A model generated the notes under the pieces. It had not been told where the DNA came from, did no database searches, and worked only from the letters and a program-made list of their open reading frames with translations. The position numbers were made by a program, and so were the translations under genes. Shown here piece by piece: positions 14,700 through 21,623 of a stretch of 64,000 nt of DNA (position 1 is the stretch's first letter; each line of letters starts with the position of its first letter). Origin of the DNA: Verrucomicrobiales bacterium (GTDB taxonomy: Bacteria > Verrucomicrobiota > Verrucomicrobiia > Verrucomicrobiales > DEV007); the NCBI GenBank assembly GCA_029213265.1, contig JARGNG010000001.1, positions 251,665 to 315,664 of the forward strand. Direction: 5' to 3'.

Positions 14700-15131
14700 A
14701 TGAAAATGATACGATACAACGATCCAGGCAGCGCTTACTCAGAGTGGGAGTCCTTTTTTGCGGATCCCTTTCGTGCGTTTGCGCCATTCTTCCGCTCCAC
14801 CTTGTCTTCCGCATACGAGCGGCCACATCAGCCCGCCGAATGGTATGAAGACGACGATCACTACTACGCCCGGGTCGAACTTCCGGGAGTGAAGCGGAGC
14901 GATCTCTCGGTAGACGCCGAAGACGGACTCGTGCGGTTCAGCTACGAACTTCGCGACTACCGCTCCGGCGAAGACTCAGAGTCTTCCCCCAGCGAGCGAT
15001 TTGAGCAGGTTCTGCGAAGCCCCGAGGGAGTCAATCTCGCCGGTATCAGTGCGAAGCTGGCCGACGGAATTCTCGAACTGACTCTTCCAAAGGCGCCGGA
15101 AAAGAAGGCCGTGCGGGTCGAAATCAAGTAA
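14700..15131 (+). CDS. Hsp20/alpha-crystallin family small heat-shock protein
   Basis: 143 residues. An ATP-independent holdase that binds unfolding proteins in the cytoplasm. Residues 1-40 are an aromatic-rich arm (SEWESFFADPFRAFAPFF), then an alpha-crystallin domain (about 43-143): EWYEDDDHYYARVELPGVKRSDLSVD and the closing A-DGILELTLPK. The C-terminal I-x-I/V tail motif is short (VRVEIK). The gene is 40 bp upstream of a second hsp20. Its expression probably depends on sigma-54 (see promoter), unusual for a heat-shock gene. Confidence 0.93.
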   Translation: MKMIRYNDPGSAYSEWESFFADPFRAFAPFFRSTLSSAYERPHQPAEWYEDDDHYYARVELPGVKRSDLSVDAEDGLVRFSYELRDYRSGEDSESSPSERFEQVLRSPEGVNLAGISAKLADGILELTLPKAPEKKAVRVEIK

Positions 15132-15171
15132 TCAAAGATCAATCCTCAAACCCTTGAACGAAAGAAATATC

Positions 15172-15567
15172 ATGATCGAAAAAAACGAAGTATCCTGTGA
15201 AACCGAAAACTGCGGCACCTCCGCCCTCTCGGTTCGTTCGGGACCTGTCTACAAACCGCGTTACCATTCTCACTACAGCGAAGAAGCGTGGGAGGTGAAG
15301 GTGAGTTTGCCGGGAGTGCAGAAAGAGCAACTGGACGTCATGGTCGAGAACGAGATCATGGAGATCAAAGCGGCGCGGCTTTTCGATACGCCGGAAGCGT
15401 GGCGTCCGCTTGCGGATTATCCCCCGGAGAAAAACTATCGGCTCCGGCTCGATGTCGGACCCGAGGTCGACCCGGAAGGTGTCACCGCCGAATTAAAAGA
15501 CGGCATTCTCGTTCTCCGGCTCCCGCTTCGCGAAGAGGTGAAGCCGAGAACGATCGAAGTGAAATAG
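15172..15567 (+). CDS. Second Hsp20/alpha-crystallin protein
   Basis: 131 residues. Alpha-crystallin domain about 33-131: YSEEAWEVKVSLPGVQKEQLDVMVENE and LKDGILVLRLPLREEVKPR, ending in TIEVK, a terminal I-x-V oligomerisation motif. The N-terminal arm is short and contains two Cys (SCETENCG). I start at ATG 15172; an in-frame TTG at 15154 is the alternative. It is distinct from its neighbour, so an old duplication; the pair may form mixed oligomers, as tandem Hsp20s do in other bacteria. A hairpin terminator follows 32 bp after the stop. Confidence 0.9.
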   Translation: MIEKNEVSCETENCGTSALSVRSGPVYKPRYHSHYSEEAWEVKVSLPGVQKEQLDVMVENEIMEIKAARLFDTPEAWRPLADYPPEKNYRLRLDVGPEVDPEGVTAELKDGILVLRLPLREEVKPRTIEVK

Positions 15568-15808: not shown

Positions 15809-17338
15809 TTGATACGCTTGCGAATCGTGCGCGGAGAAAACCACAGGAACGGATTCAGGAAGCGGCCATGGGCGGTCGGCTTGCTTACGGTTTTGTTGTG
15901 TCTGAGCCTTCTTTCCGTTCGAGCTCAGGAAGAAACGCCGCCGTCTACCAGCGTCGGGGAGACAGAATCCCGCTCCAGGCTGGTCGAGATCAAGGCTTCC
16001 CAATGGGGAGAAGATTATCAAATTCGGGTCGAAGGTGGAAATCCGCGGGCACGGGTCCTTTTCAAAATTTTTGCCAATGAACTGCGGGATGATTTTCGCT
16101 GGGCCATCTATAAATACCGTCCGGGGGAAAAGACCGACCGGACCTTTTGGACAATGCCAATCCTCATCGAGCTGTGGGGGGATGTGACGGATGTCTATCG
16201 GGATCGAGACACGAGGCTTGAGGTGAAGCTGAAGCCCGACAATCGATTTCATATTGACCTTGCGGTCAGGATTCATGATGGATTCGAAGAGGAATCGTTC
16301 CGGTTGGAAATGATTCGCGCTCTCGTGATTGAGCAGATGCTGATGCCGGCCGCGACGAATCCGGGGGCCTTTTCGGGGGATGAACTCAAACCGCCCCCCT
16401 GGATTGTGCATGGTTTTGACCAGCTGATAGAGCATCGCCGGGCAGGTCGACCGAGCTCCTTTTATGATGGCGCTCTTCGAAGCGGTCAGATTCTTGATCC
16501 GGATGAGCTTTTCGAAACCGAAAGTCCGGAAAATCTCGATCCCCTGAGTTACGCGATTTTTCGTGCGTCTGCGGCTGCCATGATCGAGGCCCTGCTGGAT
16601 CAGCCCGATGGTGATGTCGGGATTCGGGAGATACTCGCTGATGCGGGAATGAAGCCCGATGTTTCCGTTGCCTCCCTGATGCGTCAGCATTTTCCTGCCT
16701 TTCGGGAAATGGAGCAGGGAATGGAAAAATGGTGGGTTCTCCAGGTGGCGTCCCTGGGACAGCAGCAGAGTTTTGAATTTATGGACCGGGAGGAAACCGA
16801 GCGCTGGTTGACCGAAGCGCTCACAGTTCGATTCGATGGTAACGAGCTGTCGCAACTTCCCGGAAAGAAGAAAACGGGATTCTTTCAAAAGCTGATGCCG
16901 AAGAAGGAGAATCCGATCGACAGGGAGCCGTTCGCCGGGTCCATCGACCAGTACGAGGAGTTTATGGCTCGAACCAATGCGGAGGAGAAACTGGGACAAT
17001 GTTTTTCCGAGTTGCAGCGACTTAAGCAGGCCGGTTTTCCCCTGTATCGTCCCGTTTTTGAAGGCTATGAACTCGTTATCGAGCGACTGATGCGGAGGAG
17101 GATGAAAGAGATCGATGCTCAACTCGCTGCTCTCGCCGAAATGCGGGCGACGATCTATGACACGCTCGTTCGCACGGAAGACTACATGAATTACTACGAA
17201 GCGACCCGGGCTCCTCAGCGTAGCAAGGCCTTCGATGACTATCTCAAAATGCGCAAAGAACTCGATTCGGCCCCTCCGCCAAGGCGAAATGATCGTATTT
17301 CCCGCTATTTGGACGCCCTGGAGTTGGAATTTCCCTAG
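15809..17338 (+). CDS. Secreted hypothetical protein, possible degenerate peptidase-MA-like
   Basis: About 509 residues from the first possible start (TTG 15809; a GTG at 15827 also fits). A basic N-terminus leads into a signal peptide (about 22-39, AVGLLTVLLCLSLLSVRAQ). The region about 165-215 (MIRALVIEQMLMP, then PPPWIVHGFDQLIEHR) resembles the HExxH...WxxEG arrangement of peptidase-MA gluzincins, but the zinc-binding His/Glu are missing, so no protease activity is expected. The C-terminal 150 residues are helical and charged. It precedes the GAF-HlyD gene by 115 bp on the same strand and may be part of that system. Family not known to me. Confidence 0.7.
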   Translation: MIRLRIVRGENHRNGFRKRPWAVGLLTVLLCLSLLSVRAQEETPPSTSVGETESRSRLVEIKASQWGEDYQIRVEGGNPRARVLFKIFANELRDDFRWAIYKYRPGEKTDRTFWTMPILIELWGDVTDVYRDRDTRLEVKLKPDNRFHIDLAVRIHDGFEEESFRLEMIRALVIEQMLMPAATNPGAFSGDELKPPPWIVHGFDQLIEHRRAGRPSSFYDGALRSGQILDPDELFETESPENLDPLSYAIFRASAAAMIEALLDQPDGDVGIREILADAGMKPDVSVASLMRQHFPAFREMEQGMEKWWVLQVASLGQQQSFEFMDREETERWLTEALTVRFDGNELSQLPGKKKTGFFQKLMPKKENPIDREPFAGSIDQYEEFMARTNAEEKLGQCFSELQRLKQAGFPLYRPVFEGYELVIERLMRRRMKEIDAQLAALAEMRATIYDTLVRTEDYMNYYEATRAPQRSKAFDDYLKMRKELDSAPPPRRNDRISRYLDALELEFP

Positions 17339-17453
17339 ATCGGCAGCCAAGCCTTGGTGATCGACTCTGATTTCCTGCATTGTCAGGCGGCCGGAATCGA
17401 AGTATCCTTCCCCCCGGCTCTTTTTCGTTCTTCGTGAGAGCTGAATCGATACG

Positions 17454-19358
17454 ATGTCAGGAGATCTGGTTAATGAATTACGGGAGTCGGCCGGTTTGCC
17501 GGTGGGAAAGGCGCGTCCGGCTGCCAAGACCGCGTCCGAAGTTCGTGCCCTGCGGCCTCAGGATTGTCTTCATCCGCTGGCGGAGTTGTTCGGTCGATCT
17601 TCGAATCGCGCGGAATTCCTGCAGATCCTGTCTGACTACATTCGTCTGCTGATCGGGGCGGAGCTTGTGGCTCTTCATGAGAAGGGCGAGGACGGGTTGC
17701 GGCTGGCGGGGTTCGCCTCGGCAGCCGAAGGAGGCGCGGCGGTCAGGAAGAGCTGGCTTCCTTCTTCCGAAATTCTGGAGAAATCGTGGGCGGACCGGCG
17801 TAGCAGCCAGGCCCATGTCCTGATCGATAACCGGCAGCATGCCCGGCTCATGGTCCCGTTTTTTGTCCAGGACAAGCCACCGGTTTGCATCACCGCTTTT
17901 CTTCCCCCGGAGCGAATTGCTTTCTCCGACCCCTGTTTCTCGATGCTGCATCTGACAACGCAGTTCATTGTGCAGCGTGAATTGCTCGCGGATTCCCACG
18001 AGAAAGAGCTCGCGTTTGTGCAGGCGACGATGTTGGTGGAGATGTTTTCGCGGACTGCGGACGGTGACACCTTCAAGCGTTCGCTCTTTTCGCTGGTCAC
18101 CGAGCTGGAGAAATTTTTCGGCTGCCAGCGTGTCGCCATTGGAACCGGTTCCAGTCGGTCCTGCAAAGTTCACGCGGTCTCGGGAATGAGCAGTGAGGAA
18201 AAGCGAACGCTGGGACTCTCCCAGCTTGGGGCTGCGATGCGGGAGGCGATCGCTCTCGATGAGATCATGGTCTGGCCGGGGCAGAAAGAGATGGTCCGTG
18301 AAGTGGTAGTGTCTGCGAATCACGATGACCTGCTTCATTCTTTTAAATCGGGGCGAATTGTCGTGGCTCCTTTGCGTCACGAGGTGACCGGCGTTACCGG
18401 GGCAATTGCCTTGCTCTGGCCTGCGGGATCGCCTGAGGTTGCCAAGCGCACCTATCGCCTGCTGGATGCCTGTCAGCCTCATCTGGCGTCGTTGGTCGGA
18501 TTTTTGAAGCGATCGAAGCATGGTGAATTCCGGGGCGGCCTGTCGAAATTCTGGCGTCAGAGTAAACTCAAGCGGGTAGCCCTGGTCAGTGGGATCGTCG
18601 CACTGATCACGGCGATGCTCTTTCCGGTCACCTATCGGGTCAGTGCCCAATGTGTGATCCAGCCCGTCCTGCGACGGACAATCGCGGCACCCTTTGAGAA
18701 TCGTCTCTACCGGACCTATGCCAAACCCGGAGACGAAGTGGAGGCCGGACAGATTCTCGCCGAGCTCGATGGGCGGGAAATTCGTGTGGCCCTCGCCGAG
18801 TCCATTGCCGCCCGAAGCGCCGCGGTGAAGAGGAGGGACAATGCCATGGTTCTGGAAGATCCCGCGGAATTGCAGATGAGTCAGCTGGAAGCAGATCGTC
18901 TTTCGCTCGAAGTGGAACGTTTGCAGTTTCGAAATGACAACCTCCTGATCCGTTCACCGATCGATGGCGTTGTCTTGACCGGAAATCTGGAACGGTCGGA
19001 GGGCGTTCCCGTTTCCACCGGGCAGAAGCTTTTTGAGGTGGCACCGCTCGACAAGATGCTGATGGAGATCGCGATTACCGAGACTGAAATCCGCCATGTT
19101 GAGAAAGAGCAGGAAGTTGTTCTCCGGATTGAGTCTGACAGTGCCAAAAAGCGGAAGTCGACGCTGGAAACCCTCCATCCGATCTCAGAGATTCAAAGCG
19201 GGCAAAACGTATTCGTAGCCGAGGCCGTTCTCGAAAATGAGGACGGATTACTTCGTCCCGGAATGAAAGGGAGTGTCCGGATTCTCTCTGAAAAGAAATC
19301 GGTGGGGTGGATCCTTTTTCATCGTCTCTGGGAATACCTCCGACTCAAGCTGTGGTAG
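17454..19358 (+). CDS. GAF-domain / HlyD-type membrane fusion protein
   Basis: 634 residues. The cytoplasmic part has two GAF-like regions (about 40-180 and 205-345). A membrane helix follows (about 374-392, VALVSGIVALITAMLFPVTY), then a periplasmic adaptor of the HlyD/biotinyl-lipoyl class (about 395-620): AAPFENRLYRTYAKPGDEVEAGQILAELDG, a coiled-coil hairpin (450-495), IRSPIDGVVL, and the beta-barrel domain. It therefore links cytoplasmic sensing to a periplasmic export adaptor. The stop codon is 3 bp from the start of the M50-HlyD gene, so translation is very likely coupled. Substrate unknown; no ABC or RND pump or TolC-like gene is next to it. Confidence 0.85.
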   Translation: MSGDLVNELRESAGLPVGKARPAAKTASEVRALRPQDCLHPLAELFGRSSNRAEFLQILSDYIRLLIGAELVALHEKGEDGLRLAGFASAAEGGAAVRKSWLPSSEILEKSWADRRSSQAHVLIDNRQHARLMVPFFVQDKPPVCITAFLPPERIAFSDPCFSMLHLTTQFIVQRELLADSHEKELAFVQATMLVEMFSRTADGDTFKRSLFSLVTELEKFFGCQRVAIGTGSSRSCKVHAVSGMSSEEKRTLGLSQLGAAMREAIALDEIMVWPGQKEMVREVVVSANHDDLLHSFKSGRIVVAPLRHEVTGVTGAIALLWPAGSPEVAKRTYRLLDACQPHLASLVGFLKRSKHGEFRGGLSKFWRQSKLKRVALVSGIVALITAMLFPVTYRVSAQCVIQPVLRRTIAAPFENRLYRTYAKPGDEVEAGQILAELDGREIRVALAESIAARSAAVKRRDNAMVLEDPAELQMSQLEADRLSLEVERLQFRNDNLLIRSPIDGVVLTGNLERSEGVPVSTGQKLFEVAPLDKMLMEIAITETEIRHVEKEQEVVLRIESDSAKKRKSTLETLHPISEIQSGQNVFVAEAVLENEDGLLRPGMKGSVRILSEKKSVGWILFHRLWEYLRLKLW

Positions 19359-19361
19359 GAA

Positions 19362-21623
19362 ATGGCAGTCGATCACAGGGTCAGCGAGATTTCGAGTTCC
19401 CGTCCGCGACTGCGGCGGGACGTGCGGACGCATTACCAGGAGTATCGAGGCGAGCCGAGTTACATCATTGAAGACACTTCCAAGGGACGTTTCTTTCACG
19501 TCGGTTTTCCCGAGCATCAGTTTATCCAGAGTTTCGACGGCCGAACCACGATCTCGGAAGCGTTGGCGCGAAATGCAGCTACGCAGGGGGAGGACGCCCT
19601 CACCGAGGCGCAGGGCGATCAGTTGCTGCGGTGGTTAATCGACAACGATCTTCTCGAATCGGAAACCAGTGGGCAGGGCGAACGTCGTCGTGATCGTCAG
19701 ACAAAGAACCGCGAACGGCAGGAAAAAGCGAAGAATCCTGTCGCCAAGGTGATGTTTTTTAAAATCCCTCTCGGGTGTCCGGATCGATTGCTGAGTCGAG
19801 TCGAGCCATGGGTCGGTTGGGTCTTCGGCGTCCCCGGCCTCCTCCTCTGGCTCATGCTGGTAGCCTACACTCTCGTGCAATTCGCACCGGAATGGGATCG
19901 CTTTACTGCAGCAACAGGGCAGGTGATTGCTTCGGGCAGCTGGATTCGAATTGCTCTGATTTATACCGTTCTGAAGGTTCTCCACGAGTTCGGACACGGG
20001 CTTGCCACGAAAAAGTTCGGCGGAACGGTTCCGGACTGGGGGGTGCAATTGCTGGCCTTCATCACCCCGCTGGCTTTTGTCGATGCCTCAGCGAGTTGGA
20101 AATTTCCCTCCAAATGGCGAAGGATCATTGTTTCGGCAGCCGGAATGTATGTCGAAATCGCGATTGCATGCGTCTGCCTGTTGGGATGGTTGCATACGGA
20201 TTCCGGCGTTCTAAATACCTCGCTTCACAGCGCCGTTGTTGCCGCCACCTTCGTCACTTTGCTATTCAATGCGAATCCGTTGATGCGGTTTGACGGCTAC
20301 TATATTCTCCTGGACTACCTCGGGATTCCCAACCTGGGAACGAAGGGGCAGCAGTTTCTCAAGTGGGCCGGAAAACGGGTCTTTCTCGGGATGAGTGATT
20401 TGCCGATGCCTCCGTCCGTCCGGCAGCATCCCGTTGCGGTTCCATTGTACGGGGTCCTCGCCGCTCTTTGGAAGATCGTAATCTGGATCGGTATCATGGT
20501 TCTCGTCAGCCTCCTTTTCAAAGGGGCTGGACTGGTCATCGCGATCGCATCGGTCGGGGTGATGTTGGTCACTTCCGTGGTGAAATTTTTCAACTTTCTT
20601 TTCAAATCGGGAAGTGGTCCCTCTTTGTCAAAAGCCCTGCCCCGAATCGCTGTGTTTCTTCTCGCTCTGGGCGCGATTCTCTTTCTCATCCCCATCAACC
20701 CTACAGGAAAAGCCGTCGCCGTAGTCGAGTACGCGGACAGGGAAAGAATGAGGGCCTCGGTCCGGGGACTCGTCACTGAGGTCCTTGTCGAAGAGGGGCA
20801 GGAGATAAAGAAAGGCGACCTTCTCGTTGAAATGTCGAATCCGGATGAGCAGTCCGAGTACGACAAGATGCTGCTCGAATTGCGGACCGCGCGGATTCGG
20901 GCGCGGAGCTATTATCAGGTGGAGAATCTTCCTGCTTACCAGGCGGAAATCGAAACAATACTGGGTCTTGAGCGAAAGGTGGCCGAGAGCAAAGCGATTC
21001 TTTCGGGATTGAAGATAGTTGCGCCAGTAGATGGGCAGGTTGTCGGGCGGGATCTTGAATCCCTGCCCGGAAAATGGGTTGGAATCGGTGATGAAATTCT
21101 CTCGGTGGTTCCCAATGAAAAAATGGACCTCCTTATTTCCTTCCGCCAGGATGACATTGACGATCTTGCCGGGCAAAAGGACCGCGATATCCGCGTCCGG
21201 CTTCGCGGGCGAACCCGCGATTTGGAAGGCGTGATTGATCGGATTGAGAGTCGCGCCACGCGTGCTCTGCCTCATGAAGTAATGGCCTCGCCCAACGGAG
21301 GACCGCTCGCCTTGCGAACGTCGAGCGATCCGGTGGCCGAAAGGGATCGGGAAATCGCCGGTGGGGGCGGGGCATACGATCTCGACCTGGATTACTTTTC
21401 CGGGCTGGGACAGCAGGGGCAATCCCGGGAACTGGCACGCGCAAGATTCGCCGGAAGGGCAATTATTACATCGGAGGGAGTGCGGGAACTGCGCGAAGGG
21501 GAGTGGGGGTATGTAAGCTTTGCCAACGCGGAGAAAGAAGTGCTTGGAAAATGGCTTTTCCAGGAAGTCTCGGGATACGTTCGGGACAAAATTGAACAGG
21601 CCCGCGCCGCTTCGGCGAGTTGA
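19362..21623 (+). CDS. PqqD-like / M50 site-2 protease / HlyD fusion protein
   Basis: 753 residues in three parts. Residues about 19-100 resemble PqqD-type peptide-binding domains (FHVGFPEHQFIQSFDGRTTI, then LLRWLIDNDLLES). Residues about 145-455 are a multi-pass M50 metalloprotease with the zinc motif HEFGH (208-212) and the third ligand in NPLMRFDGYY (Asp311), so catalytically intact. Residues about 465-750 form a HlyD-like adaptor (VRGLVTEVLVEEGQEIKKGDLL, IVAPVDGQVVGRDLE). Known relatives (COG1994 with COG0845) occur beside peptide modification or export genes. Here it is coupled to GAF-HlyD. Likely job: bind, cut in the membrane and help export a peptide or protein; the substrate is not visible. 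Confidence 0.85.
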   Translation: MAVDHRVSEISSSRPRLRRDVRTHYQEYRGEPSYIIEDTSKGRFFHVGFPEHQFIQSFDGRTTISEALARNAATQGEDALTEAQGDQLLRWLIDNDLLESETSGQGERRRDRQTKNRERQEKAKNPVAKVMFFKIPLGCPDRLLSRVEPWVGWVFGVPGLLLWLMLVAYTLVQFAPEWDRFTAATGQVIASGSWIRIALIYTVLKVLHEFGHGLATKKFGGTVPDWGVQLLAFITPLAFVDASASWKFPSKWRRIIVSAAGMYVEIAIACVCLLGWLHTDSGVLNTSLHSAVVAATFVTLLFNANPLMRFDGYYILLDYLGIPNLGTKGQQFLKWAGKRVFLGMSDLPMPPSVRQHPVAVPLYGVLAALWKIVIWIGIMVLVSLLFKGAGLVIAIASVGVMLVTSVVKFFNFLFKSGSGPSLSKALPRIAVFLLALGAILFLIPINPTGKAVAVVEYADRERMRASVRGLVTEVLVEEGQEIKKGDLLVEMSNPDEQSEYDKMLLELRTARIRARSYYQVENLPAYQAEIETILGLERKVAESKAILSGLKIVAPVDGQVVGRDLESLPGKWVGIGDEILSVVPNEKMDLLISFRQDDIDDLAGQKDRDIRVRLRGRTRDLEGVIDRIESRATRALPHEVMASPNGGPLALRTSSDPVAERDREIAGGGGAYDLDLDYFSGLGQQGQSRELARARFAGRAIITSEGVRELREGEWGYVSFANAEKEVLGKWLFQEVSGYVRDKIEQARAASAS

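What the first reader, a model, noticed from the sequence alone, without database searches (positions are those of the whole stretch)
15809..21623. GAF-HlyD and PqqD/M50/HlyD pair with a secreted partner: candidate peptide processing and export system
Seen: the two adaptor genes are 3 bp apart, so production is coupled. One protein has cytoplasmic GAF-like domains, one membrane helix and a periplasmic HlyD adaptor. The other has a PqqD-like domain, an intact M50 zinc site (HEFGH and Asp in NPLMRFDGYY) and a second HlyD adaptor. The secreted 509-residue protein before them looks like an inactivated peptidase-MA. Known: PqqD-like domains bind ribosomal peptides, and M50-HlyD proteins occur beside peptide modification genes. 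Inference: the block senses a small ligand through the GAF part and exports or releases a peptide after intramembrane cleavage. No pump, outer-membrane channel or precursor peptide is in view, so how it works is open.
Basis: partly seen in the sequence, partly recalled or inferred. Interest (0 to 1): 0.7.

Follow-up and report, generated by a model that had tools for sequence, protein, structure and literature searches.

The report
Export machine for giant surface proteins
Two adjoining genes encode adaptor parts of a bacterial cell-envelope machine that likely exports giant surface proteins, some predicted to exceed 20,000 amino acids, which gives a testable cargo for a secretion module whose role was called unknown.

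Summary
The pair is real. 17454-19358 is GAF / one membrane helix / HlyD; 19362-21623 is PqqD(RRE)-like / intact M50 zinc site / HlyD; the gap is 3 bp. The 509-residue gene before them is not a partner: it is in 33 of 36 genomes, also pair-less ones, mostly away from the pair. The pair belongs to a module described in 2015 (GAF-HlyD, M50-HlyD, HlyD, secondary SecA, sometimes TolC; role 'completely unknown').
New here is a likely cargo: giant LEPR-XLL proteins (ORFs up to 20,466 aa). In 288 Verrucomicrobiota, 22 of 25 genomes with the accessory SecA have LEPR-XLL, against 5 of 263 without. In Pseudomonadota, M50-HlyD is in 47 of 48 LEPR genomes, and 35 of 59 LEPR ORFs of 1000 aa or more lie within 10 kb of it (1.9 expected). 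Two loci hold GAF-HlyD, M50-HlyD, giant gene, TolC, SecA and HlyD in one row. The window's genome has each part, on three contigs. LEPR N-termini are basic, and 50 of 51 lack a hydrophobic signal-peptide stretch. Proposed, untested: the RRE-like domain binds this leader, SecA drives export, M50 clips it.

The parts
17454..19358 (+). GAF-HlyD protein (634 aa): GAF region (predicted cytoplasmic), one membrane helix, membrane-fusion (adaptor) domain predicted to be periplasmic
   Evidence: directly upstream of M50-HlyD in 57 of 80 named loci
18093..18482 (+). GAF_3 match, residues 214-343
   Evidence: E 1.6e-4, below the curated cut-off
18567..18641 (+). single predicted membrane helix, residues 372-396
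   Evidence: hydropathy
18678..19265 (+). HlyD_D23 membrane-fusion domain, residues 409-604
   Evidence: E 2.7e-18
19362..21623 (+). RRE/PqqD-like + M50 + HlyD protein (753 aa), the proposed core of the export machine
19404..19649 (+). PqqD/RRE-like domain, residues about 15-96 (three strands, three helices)
19983..19997 (+). zinc motif HEFGH, residues 208-212
   Evidence: H208, E209, H212 invariant in 42 rows
20274..20303 (+). second metal motif NPLMRFDGYY (Asp311), residues 305-314
20694..21563 (+). second membrane-fusion domain, residues 445-734
15809..17338 (+). 509-aa protein with a hydrophobic N-terminus; NOT part of the system (neighbour by descent)
   Evidence: in 33 of 36 genomes, mostly away from the pair

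Best explanation
The pair encodes two of the three HlyD-type adaptors of a two-membrane export machine that likely secretes giant LEPR-XLL surface proteins. Shown by calls: the domains; the recurring neighbourhood with a third HlyD, an accessory SecA without a wing/scaffold match and a TolC-like gene; the co-occurrence and adjacency with LEPR-XLL giants; the basic LEPR N-terminus, in 50 of 51 without a signal-peptide-like stretch; and each part present in the window's own genome. Inferred: the LEPR segment is an export leader; the RRE-like domain of M50-HlyD captures it as RREs capture peptide leaders; the accessory SecA (or, in SecA-less loci, perhaps the housekeeping SecA) pushes the unfolded chain; the HlyD domains join the inner-membrane parts to the TolC-like channel; the M50 site removes the leader during or after passage; the GAF part gates or regulates assembly.
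For: Co-occurrence. Verrucomicrobiota, 288 genomes: accessory SecA in 25, LEPR-XLL in 27, both in 22 (Fisher p 3.5e-25); the 5 LEPR hits without SecA are ORFs of 138-636 aa with E 9.6e-4 or weaker. M50-HlyD in 25 of 25 accessory-SecA genomes and 3 of 35 others tested. All five genera that hold both SecA states (g22, g26, g29, g48, g64) switch LEPR with it. Pseudomonadota, 397 genomes: accessory SecA 30, LEPR 48, both 28; M50-HlyD in 30 of 30 SecA+, 19 of 20 LEPR+SecA-, 6 of 30 with neither. Of 26 named module genomes of other groups, 21 have LEPR hits at E<=0.1, 17 at E<=0.01 (1 of 14 control genomes also rings at E<=0.1). Adjacency: 35 of 59 LEPR ORFs >=1000 aa within 10 kb of M50-HlyD, 1.9 expected, maximum 9 in 200,000 simulations; 11 of 38 in Verrucomicrobiota. 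Single-row loci: G005:C44 and G012:C14. Own genome: one LEPR ORF of 10,269 codons cut by a contig end, OMF-SecA-HlyD operon. N-termini: 1 of 51 LEPR proteins has a stretch with hydropathy >=2, against 30 of 36 OMFs and 0 of 48 SecAs. RRE fold, M50 fold, invariant zinc residues.
Against: No experiment shows export. Accessory SecA was not found in 20 of 48 LEPR genomes in Pseudomonadota; at least one has a diverged SecA-like gene in place (G714), but other SecA-less loci look complete, so SecA is probably not strictly needed. Some M50-HlyD trios have no giant gene in view (e.g. L316, L317, L326-L329). G026 has five LEPR hits but neither M50-HlyD nor accessory SecA (83% complete, 670 contigs). 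G002, G006 and G016 have the machine but no LEPR hit, likewise G295, G218, G117 and G418, G375. In genera g7 and g65 weak LEPR hits come and go without SecA. In the window's genome the parts lie on three contigs. Only 19 of 80 named loci show a LEPR start within the stretch held, and 4 of 80 hold an ORF with ABC-ATPase motifs somewhere in it (L093, L094, L098, L106). The 2015 authors found only the GAF gene of the Methylobacterium operon clearly expressed. RRE matches tie with similar folds in unrelated enzymes.
Confidence: 0.62

Rival explanations
1. One reading: a small ribosomal peptide is bound by the PqqD-like domain, cut by M50 and exported or released, with the 509-aa secreted protein as partner.
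For: M50-HlyD matches the daptide metalloprotease NF041824 over residues 16-406 (157 bits) and YydH/LiaK NF058609 (42.5 bits); the RRE-like fold.
Against: Scores far below the cut-offs of 300 and 225; the proposed partner is not linked; no 20-120 aa ORF family near M50-HlyD reaches more than 7 of 101 loci, while giant ORFs recur beside the pair.
Confidence: 0.08
2. The module exports something else (small molecules, lipids or other proteins), and LEPR giants are carried along because both belong to large, surface-active environmental genomes.
For: Some M50-HlyD trios lie beside no giant gene; HlyD/TolC parts serve many cargoes (general knowledge).
Against: Adjacency 35 of 59 against 1.9 expected; switching together within five genera; single-row loci with the giant gene between module genes.
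Confidence: 0.15
3. The giants leave by housekeeping Sec or a classical type I system, and the RRE-M50-HlyD / GAF-HlyD pair is a processing or surveillance device that clips or senses stalled giant proteins.
For: Intact protease site, GAF region, SecA-less loci that keep the HlyD trio.
Against: 50 of 51 LEPR N-termini lack a signal-peptide-like stretch; no ORF with both ABC motifs in 17 loci of LEPR genomes counted SecA-less; adaptors plus a TolC-like gene in a row look like a conduit.
Confidence: 0.15

Closest known systems
Secondary SecA_DEAD / type-I-related module (Kamneva, Poudel & Ward 2015, PMC4452313; abstract, part of Methods and of the first Results section, and sections 16-18 read)
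   Same: GAF-HlyD, M50-HlyD, HlyD/biotin-lipoyl, secondary SecA, sometimes OEP, no ABC found; parts sometimes scattered in a genome; Planctomycetes, Verrucomicrobia, Proteobacteria, Nitrospirae, Chlorobi
   Different: [quoted passage not shown] here a cargo family, an RRE-like domain, conserved catalytic residues and SecA-less forms are added
Type I secretion system (HlyB-HlyD-TolC)
   Same: HlyD-type adaptors and a TolC-like channel; very large repeat-rich cargo
   Different: No ABC transporter recognised in the core; three adaptors, one fused to M50 and one to GAF; cargo signal seems N-terminal
Daptide / epipeptide M50 proteases (NF041824, NF058609; EpeP in PMC10885120, passages read)
   Same: M50 metalloprotease domain, similarity over residues 16-406, leader handling; EpeP is thought to cleave and export
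   Different: HlyD domain added; the associated protein is giant, not a small peptide; below the curated cut-offs
RRE / PqqD leader-binding proteins (TbiB1, lasso B1, PqqD)

Membership tests
Secondary SecA_DEAD / type-I-related module (Kamneva 2015) | M50-HlyD protein | tested here: met
   window 19362-21623
Secondary SecA_DEAD / type-I-related module (Kamneva 2015) | GAF-HlyD protein | tested here: met
   window 17454-19358, (GAF_3 below its cut-off; local profile of relatives matches)
Secondary SecA_DEAD / type-I-related module (Kamneva 2015) | secondary SecA_DEAD protein in the genome | tested here: met
   G000:C165, 653 aa, PF07517 1.3e-88, PF01043 and PF21090, on another contig than the pair; none of 6 accessory SecAs scanned matches the wing/scaffold PF07516, the one housekeeping SecA scanned does
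Secondary SecA_DEAD / type-I-related module (Kamneva 2015) | third HlyD/biotin-lipoyl protein | tested here: met
   L165:8249-9145
Classical type I secretion system | ABC transporter as energiser | tested here: not met
   no ORF with both ABC motifs in the window or in 17 loci of LEPR genomes counted SecA-less; 4 of 80 named loci hold such an ORF somewhere; the rest of the genome was not searched for ABC exporters
Classical type I secretion system | C-terminal secretion signal in the cargo | not tested
   many giant ORFs are cut by contig or locus ends
M50 / site-2 protease | HExxH and distal Asp in NPxxxxDG | tested here: met
   invariant in 42 rows; fold matches RseP over 189-321; Pfam score 22.1 is below the cut-off 27.2
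M50 / site-2 protease | proteolytic activity | not testable with these tools
   -
Daptide intramembrane metalloprotease (NF041824) | score of at least 300 bits | tested here: not met
   157.1 bits
PqqD / RRE domain | sequence or fold match | tested here: met
   [not shown]
PqqD / RRE domain | binding of a leader peptide | not testable with these tools
   -

The most novel reading that the evidence does not exclude
The LEPR-XLL segment is a peptide-leader-like tag on proteins of thousands of residues: an RRE domain on the M50-HlyD protein captures it, a wing-less SecA (or housekeeping SecA) threads the chain through an M50-adaptor-TolC conduit with no ABC transporter, and the intramembrane protease clips the tag. 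This would be a distinct class of secretion system, shared by Verrucomicrobiota, Planctomycetota, Pseudomonadota, Nitrospirota and Desulfobacterota, that took over the leader-recognition logic of ribosomal peptide pathways to export some of the largest bacterial proteins.
Probability: 0.35. Interest if true: 0.9.

Novelty: new variant of a known kind. Interest (0 to 1): 0.72.

Why it matters
Giant genes of environmental bacteria are known (passages in PMC12057145 and PMC6461901), but how such chains leave the cell is, to my knowledge, seldom addressed; the SecA/HlyD/M50 module was described in 2015 as machinery without a known role. Joining the two makes both testable in one experiment and suggests a two-membrane exporter energised by a SecA-type motor rather than an ABC transporter, with a short N-terminal tag that could direct very large proteins to the surface.

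Tried and rejected
Rejected: the 509-aa gene as partner. Not borne out: peptidase-MA for it (no Pfam match at E<=0.1; no other test was made). Rejected: a small precursor peptide (4577 ORFs of 20-120 aa within 5 kb before and 3 kb after M50-HlyD in 101 loci, some of them copies of one genome; largest family in 7 loci, and several families lie antisense inside other genes; ORFs overlapping module genes were left out). Rejected: tailoring enzymes as a general part: a tryptophan halogenase sits before the giant gene in the own genome, a radical SAM and two 2OG-Fe(II) oxygenases lie between M50-HlyD and the giant gene in G012, SapC occurs in four Pseudomonadota genomes, but a search of the ORFs of all loci held found each in few places. 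Considered: M50 as a mere pore (2015 proposal); the invariant zinc residues speak for catalysis but do not exclude a pore. Fold searches of the whole M50-HlyD model list mostly adaptor domains, so the RRE part was folded alone.

Literature: searches; I saw no listed paper that joins LEPR-XLL proteins to the module, judging by titles, abstracts and the passages read; bioRxiv and most subscription papers are not held. Of the two LEPR-XLL papers, PMC10868602 was read at one passage and PMC9611531 only as a listing; PMC6461901, PMC12057145, PMC10885120 and PMC8277102 by passages.

Limits of counts: NF012209 is a 24-position model, so LEPR counts depend on the cut-off (E<=0.01, 0.1), and it missed one of four giant proteins scanned (L049, MEQRLLLTA). 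Three genomes counted LEPR-negative have LEPR-like giants beside M50-HlyD (G364, G040, G130), three more have giant ORFs cut by contig ends (G343, G218, G375), and G343, counted SecA-negative, has a SecA-like gene beside M50-HlyD; none was moved in the counts. Fisher values are not corrected for ancestry. Negative genomes were not random draws: the 30 came from the listings, and of the 35 five had weak LEPR hits and 30 were picked by hand. In one search ORF extents were estimated from motif position and open-frame length, LEPR ORFs under 1000 aa were dropped, and M50 rows below about 327 bits were not entered, so adjacency is a lower bound. Locus counts use profiles built from Verrucomicrobiota loci on contigs that are often cut, hence lower bounds. 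The 51 N-termini come from NF012209 loci filtered by a motif pattern, so the motif is conserved partly by choice; their start was taken as the most upstream Met within 90 residues, and the scan ran to 30 residues past the motif start, against the first 90 residues in the controls.

Full report

THE 509-RESIDUE NEIGHBOUR. It is found in 33 of 36 genomes (own included; not in G003, G013, G022), also in genomes with no pair, and with one match in each positive genome of the genus. It adjoins the pair only in the window's genome and G004, G006 and G007, where Hsp20 genes upstream are kept too. In the other pair-bearing genomes of the genus the two are on different contigs, except that in G002 a contig holds this gene and, 244 bp on, only the last 35 residues of M50-HlyD with a stop, like the scar of a lost pair. 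It is a neighbour by descent, not a partner.

NEIGHBOURHOODS. The pair recurs through the genus and beyond: 28 of 36 genomes have a match to M50-HlyD at E<=0.001, 22 of them of 190 bits or more. Around it, in many relatives, lie a TolC-like protein (PF02321), a short SecA (SecA_DEAD, preprotein cross-linking and P-loop domains) and a third small HlyD. In two places in the genus the genes stand in one row on one strand: GAF-HlyD, M50-HlyD, giant gene, OMF, SecA, HlyD (G005:C44, loci L042/L178; G012:C14, loci L038/L177). The giant genes begin with a basic stretch and a motif such as FEALEPRVLFSA; three of four scanned match the NCBIfam LEPR-XLL domain NF012209. The window's own genome has one LEPR hit, in an open frame of 10,269 codons cut by its contig end (C174), one accessory SecA in an OMF-SecA-HlyD operon (C165), and the pair on C80. 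None of six accessory SecAs scanned matches the wing/scaffold domain PF07516, which the one housekeeping SecA scanned does. In 80 named loci with M50-HlyD, the stretch held shows GAF-HlyD in 64, a further HlyD in 59, SecA in 35, OMF in 24 and a LEPR start in 19 (lower bounds).

KNOWN MODULE. Kamneva, Poudel and Ward (2015, PMC4452313; abstract, part of Methods and of the first Results section, and sections 16-18 read) described this set of genes around secondary SecA_DEAD proteins, found no ABC transporter in the loci, proposed SecA as ATPase, M50 as pore and GAF as regulator, and called the broader role 'completely unknown'. The words LEPR, giant and PqqD do not occur in its main text. So the machine is not new; the cargo and the leader-handling reading are what this work adds.

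CARGO TEST 1, VERRUCOMICROBIOTA. In 288 genomes of 152 genera the accessory SecA (645-1008 bits; housekeeping at most 427) is in 25 and LEPR-XLL in 27, both in 22 (Fisher p 3.5e-25). The five LEPR hits without SecA are short ORFs (138-636 aa; E 9.6e-4 or weaker); G295, G218 and G117 have SecA without a LEPR hit. M50-HlyD is in 25 of 25 SecA genomes and in 3 of 35 others tested. Five genera hold both SecA states (g22, g26, g29, g48, g64), and in all five LEPR switches with SecA, which speaks against mere shared ancestry; in g7 and g65, without SecA, weak LEPR hits vary. In the window's own genus (23 genomes G000-G022) SecA is in 16, 13 of them with LEPR; none of the 7 without SecA has LEPR. In the whole set of 36, SecA is in 18 genomes, LEPR (E<=0.1) in 18, both in 15; G026, G032 and G033 have LEPR without SecA, and G002, G006 and G016 SecA without LEPR.

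CARGO TEST 2, PSEUDOMONADOTA. In 397 genomes the accessory SecA (match reaching the model's end, 588 bits or more) is in 30, LEPR in 48, both in 28 (p 9e-28). M50-HlyD is in 30 of 30 SecA genomes, 19 of 20 LEPR genomes without SecA (the miss, G567, is a 64-aa ORF) and 6 of 30 with neither. Together 47 of 48 LEPR genomes carry the window's M50-HlyD family, against 8 of 32 LEPR-negative ones tested (p 1.4e-12). Of 59 LEPR ORFs of 1000 aa or more, 35 lie within 10 kb of an M50-HlyD gene; 1.9 are expected by chance and the maximum of 200,000 simulations was 9. In Verrucomicrobiota the figure is 11 of 38 (no simulation made).

OTHER GROUPS. Of 26 named genomes with the module from outside Verrucomicrobiota (26 of the 80 loci, picked by hand), 21 have LEPR hits at E<=0.1 and 17 at E<=0.01, among them Bradyrhizobium sp. 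DOA9 (9838 aa), Aquabacter cavernae (8687 aa), a Desulforapulum MAG (17,246 aa) and Marinobacter sp. F3R11 (1727 aa); 1 of 14 control genomes rings at E<=0.1. The longest LEPR ORF seen is 20,466 aa (G049).

WITHOUT SecA. In 17 loci around M50-HlyD from LEPR genomes counted as lacking accessory SecA, several show a TolC-like gene, two HlyD genes and M50-HlyD in a row next to the giant gene (e.g. G529, locus L294: OMF 596 aa, HlyD 266 aa, HlyD 452 aa, M50-HlyD); no ORF with both ABC motifs was seen, and G714 has a diverged SecA-like gene in the usual place. So the M50-HlyD and HlyD trio, rather than SecA, looks like the constant part.

LEADER. In 51 LEPR N-termini the motif starts at a median of 45 residues, with median net charge +5 before it; only 1 has a hydrophobic stretch of signal-peptide strength, against 30 of 36 OMFs and 0 of 48 SecAs from the loci. 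Cargo domains found are those of surface repeat proteins: cadherin-like and Big_9 (Marinobacter), DUF11 (G005), VCBS (G015), PATR and Calx-beta (own genome; the first 2166 residues of the own giant have no Pfam match at E<=1e-5).

MECHANISM (inferred). RRE-type domains bind the N-terminal leaders of small ribosomal peptides (general knowledge; leader-bound structures), and the M50 protease EpeP is thought to cut and export its peptide (PMC10885120, passages). The window's protein joins such a domain and an intact protease to an HlyD adaptor, and its usual companion is a protein with a short conserved N-terminal motif. The simplest reading is leader capture by the RRE-like part, threading by a SecA-type motor, passage through adaptors and channel, and clipping by M50. 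Export, binding and clipping are all untested.

AGAINST. No functional data; SecA-less forms; M50-HlyD trios with no giant gene in view; G026 with LEPR but no M50-HlyD (incomplete genome); RRE matches that tie with similar folds of unrelated enzymes; ABC-motif ORFs somewhere in 4 of 80 named loci; only the GAF gene of the Methylobacterium operon clearly expressed in the 2015 reanalysis. A further look at M50-positive, LEPR-negative genomes found LEPR-like giants beside the gene in three (G364, G040, G130) and giant ORFs cut by contig ends in three more (G343, G218, G375), so some of the exceptions are limits of the 24-position model.

Noticed in passing
window 15809-17338: A protein with a hydrophobic N-terminus, present in 33 of 36 genomes of the order searched and without Pfam or NCBIfam match at E<=0.1: an uncharacterised conserved family.
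   Followed up: partly
G002:C77:1-1581: The relative of the 509-aa gene is followed by only the last 35 residues of M50-HlyD with an internal stop, which looks like the scar of a lost pair.
   Followed up: no
L162:1843-3420 (G000:C174): A tryptophan halogenase (PF04820) lies directly before the giant LEPR gene of the own genome, after a sulfatase.
   Followed up: partly
L035:5711-8453 (G012:C19): Two 2OG-Fe(II) oxygenases and a radical SAM protein lie between M50-HlyD and a 9770-aa LEPR gene, as if the giant protein were chemically modified.
   Followed up: partly
G007:C80:13802-96288: Four LEPR starts on one strand (ORFs of 4674 to 8949 aa) on the contig that also carries the pair, which lies about 15 kb beyond the last start.
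   Followed up: no
L308:11725-12579 and L274, L309, L111: A SapC-domain gene (PF07277) sits among or beside the module genes in Bradyrhizobium DOA9, Aquabacter and two unnamed Pseudomonadota genomes.
   Followed up: partly
L036:6709-7083, L035:12521-12892, L102:1740-2132, L091:7816-8121, L072:6151-6477: A small DUF3467 protein lies directly upstream of GAF-HlyD in all five loci where it was found; role unknown.
   Followed up: partly
L316, L317, L326, L327, L328, L329: A subgroup of HlyD/HlyD/M50-HlyD trios (in L329 only two of the three) in Pseudomonadota has no giant gene in view and may carry another cargo.
   Followed up: partly
window 14700-15567: Two adjacent Hsp20 genes upstream of the pair; Hsp20 genes also precede the pair in G004, G006 and G007.
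   Followed up: partly
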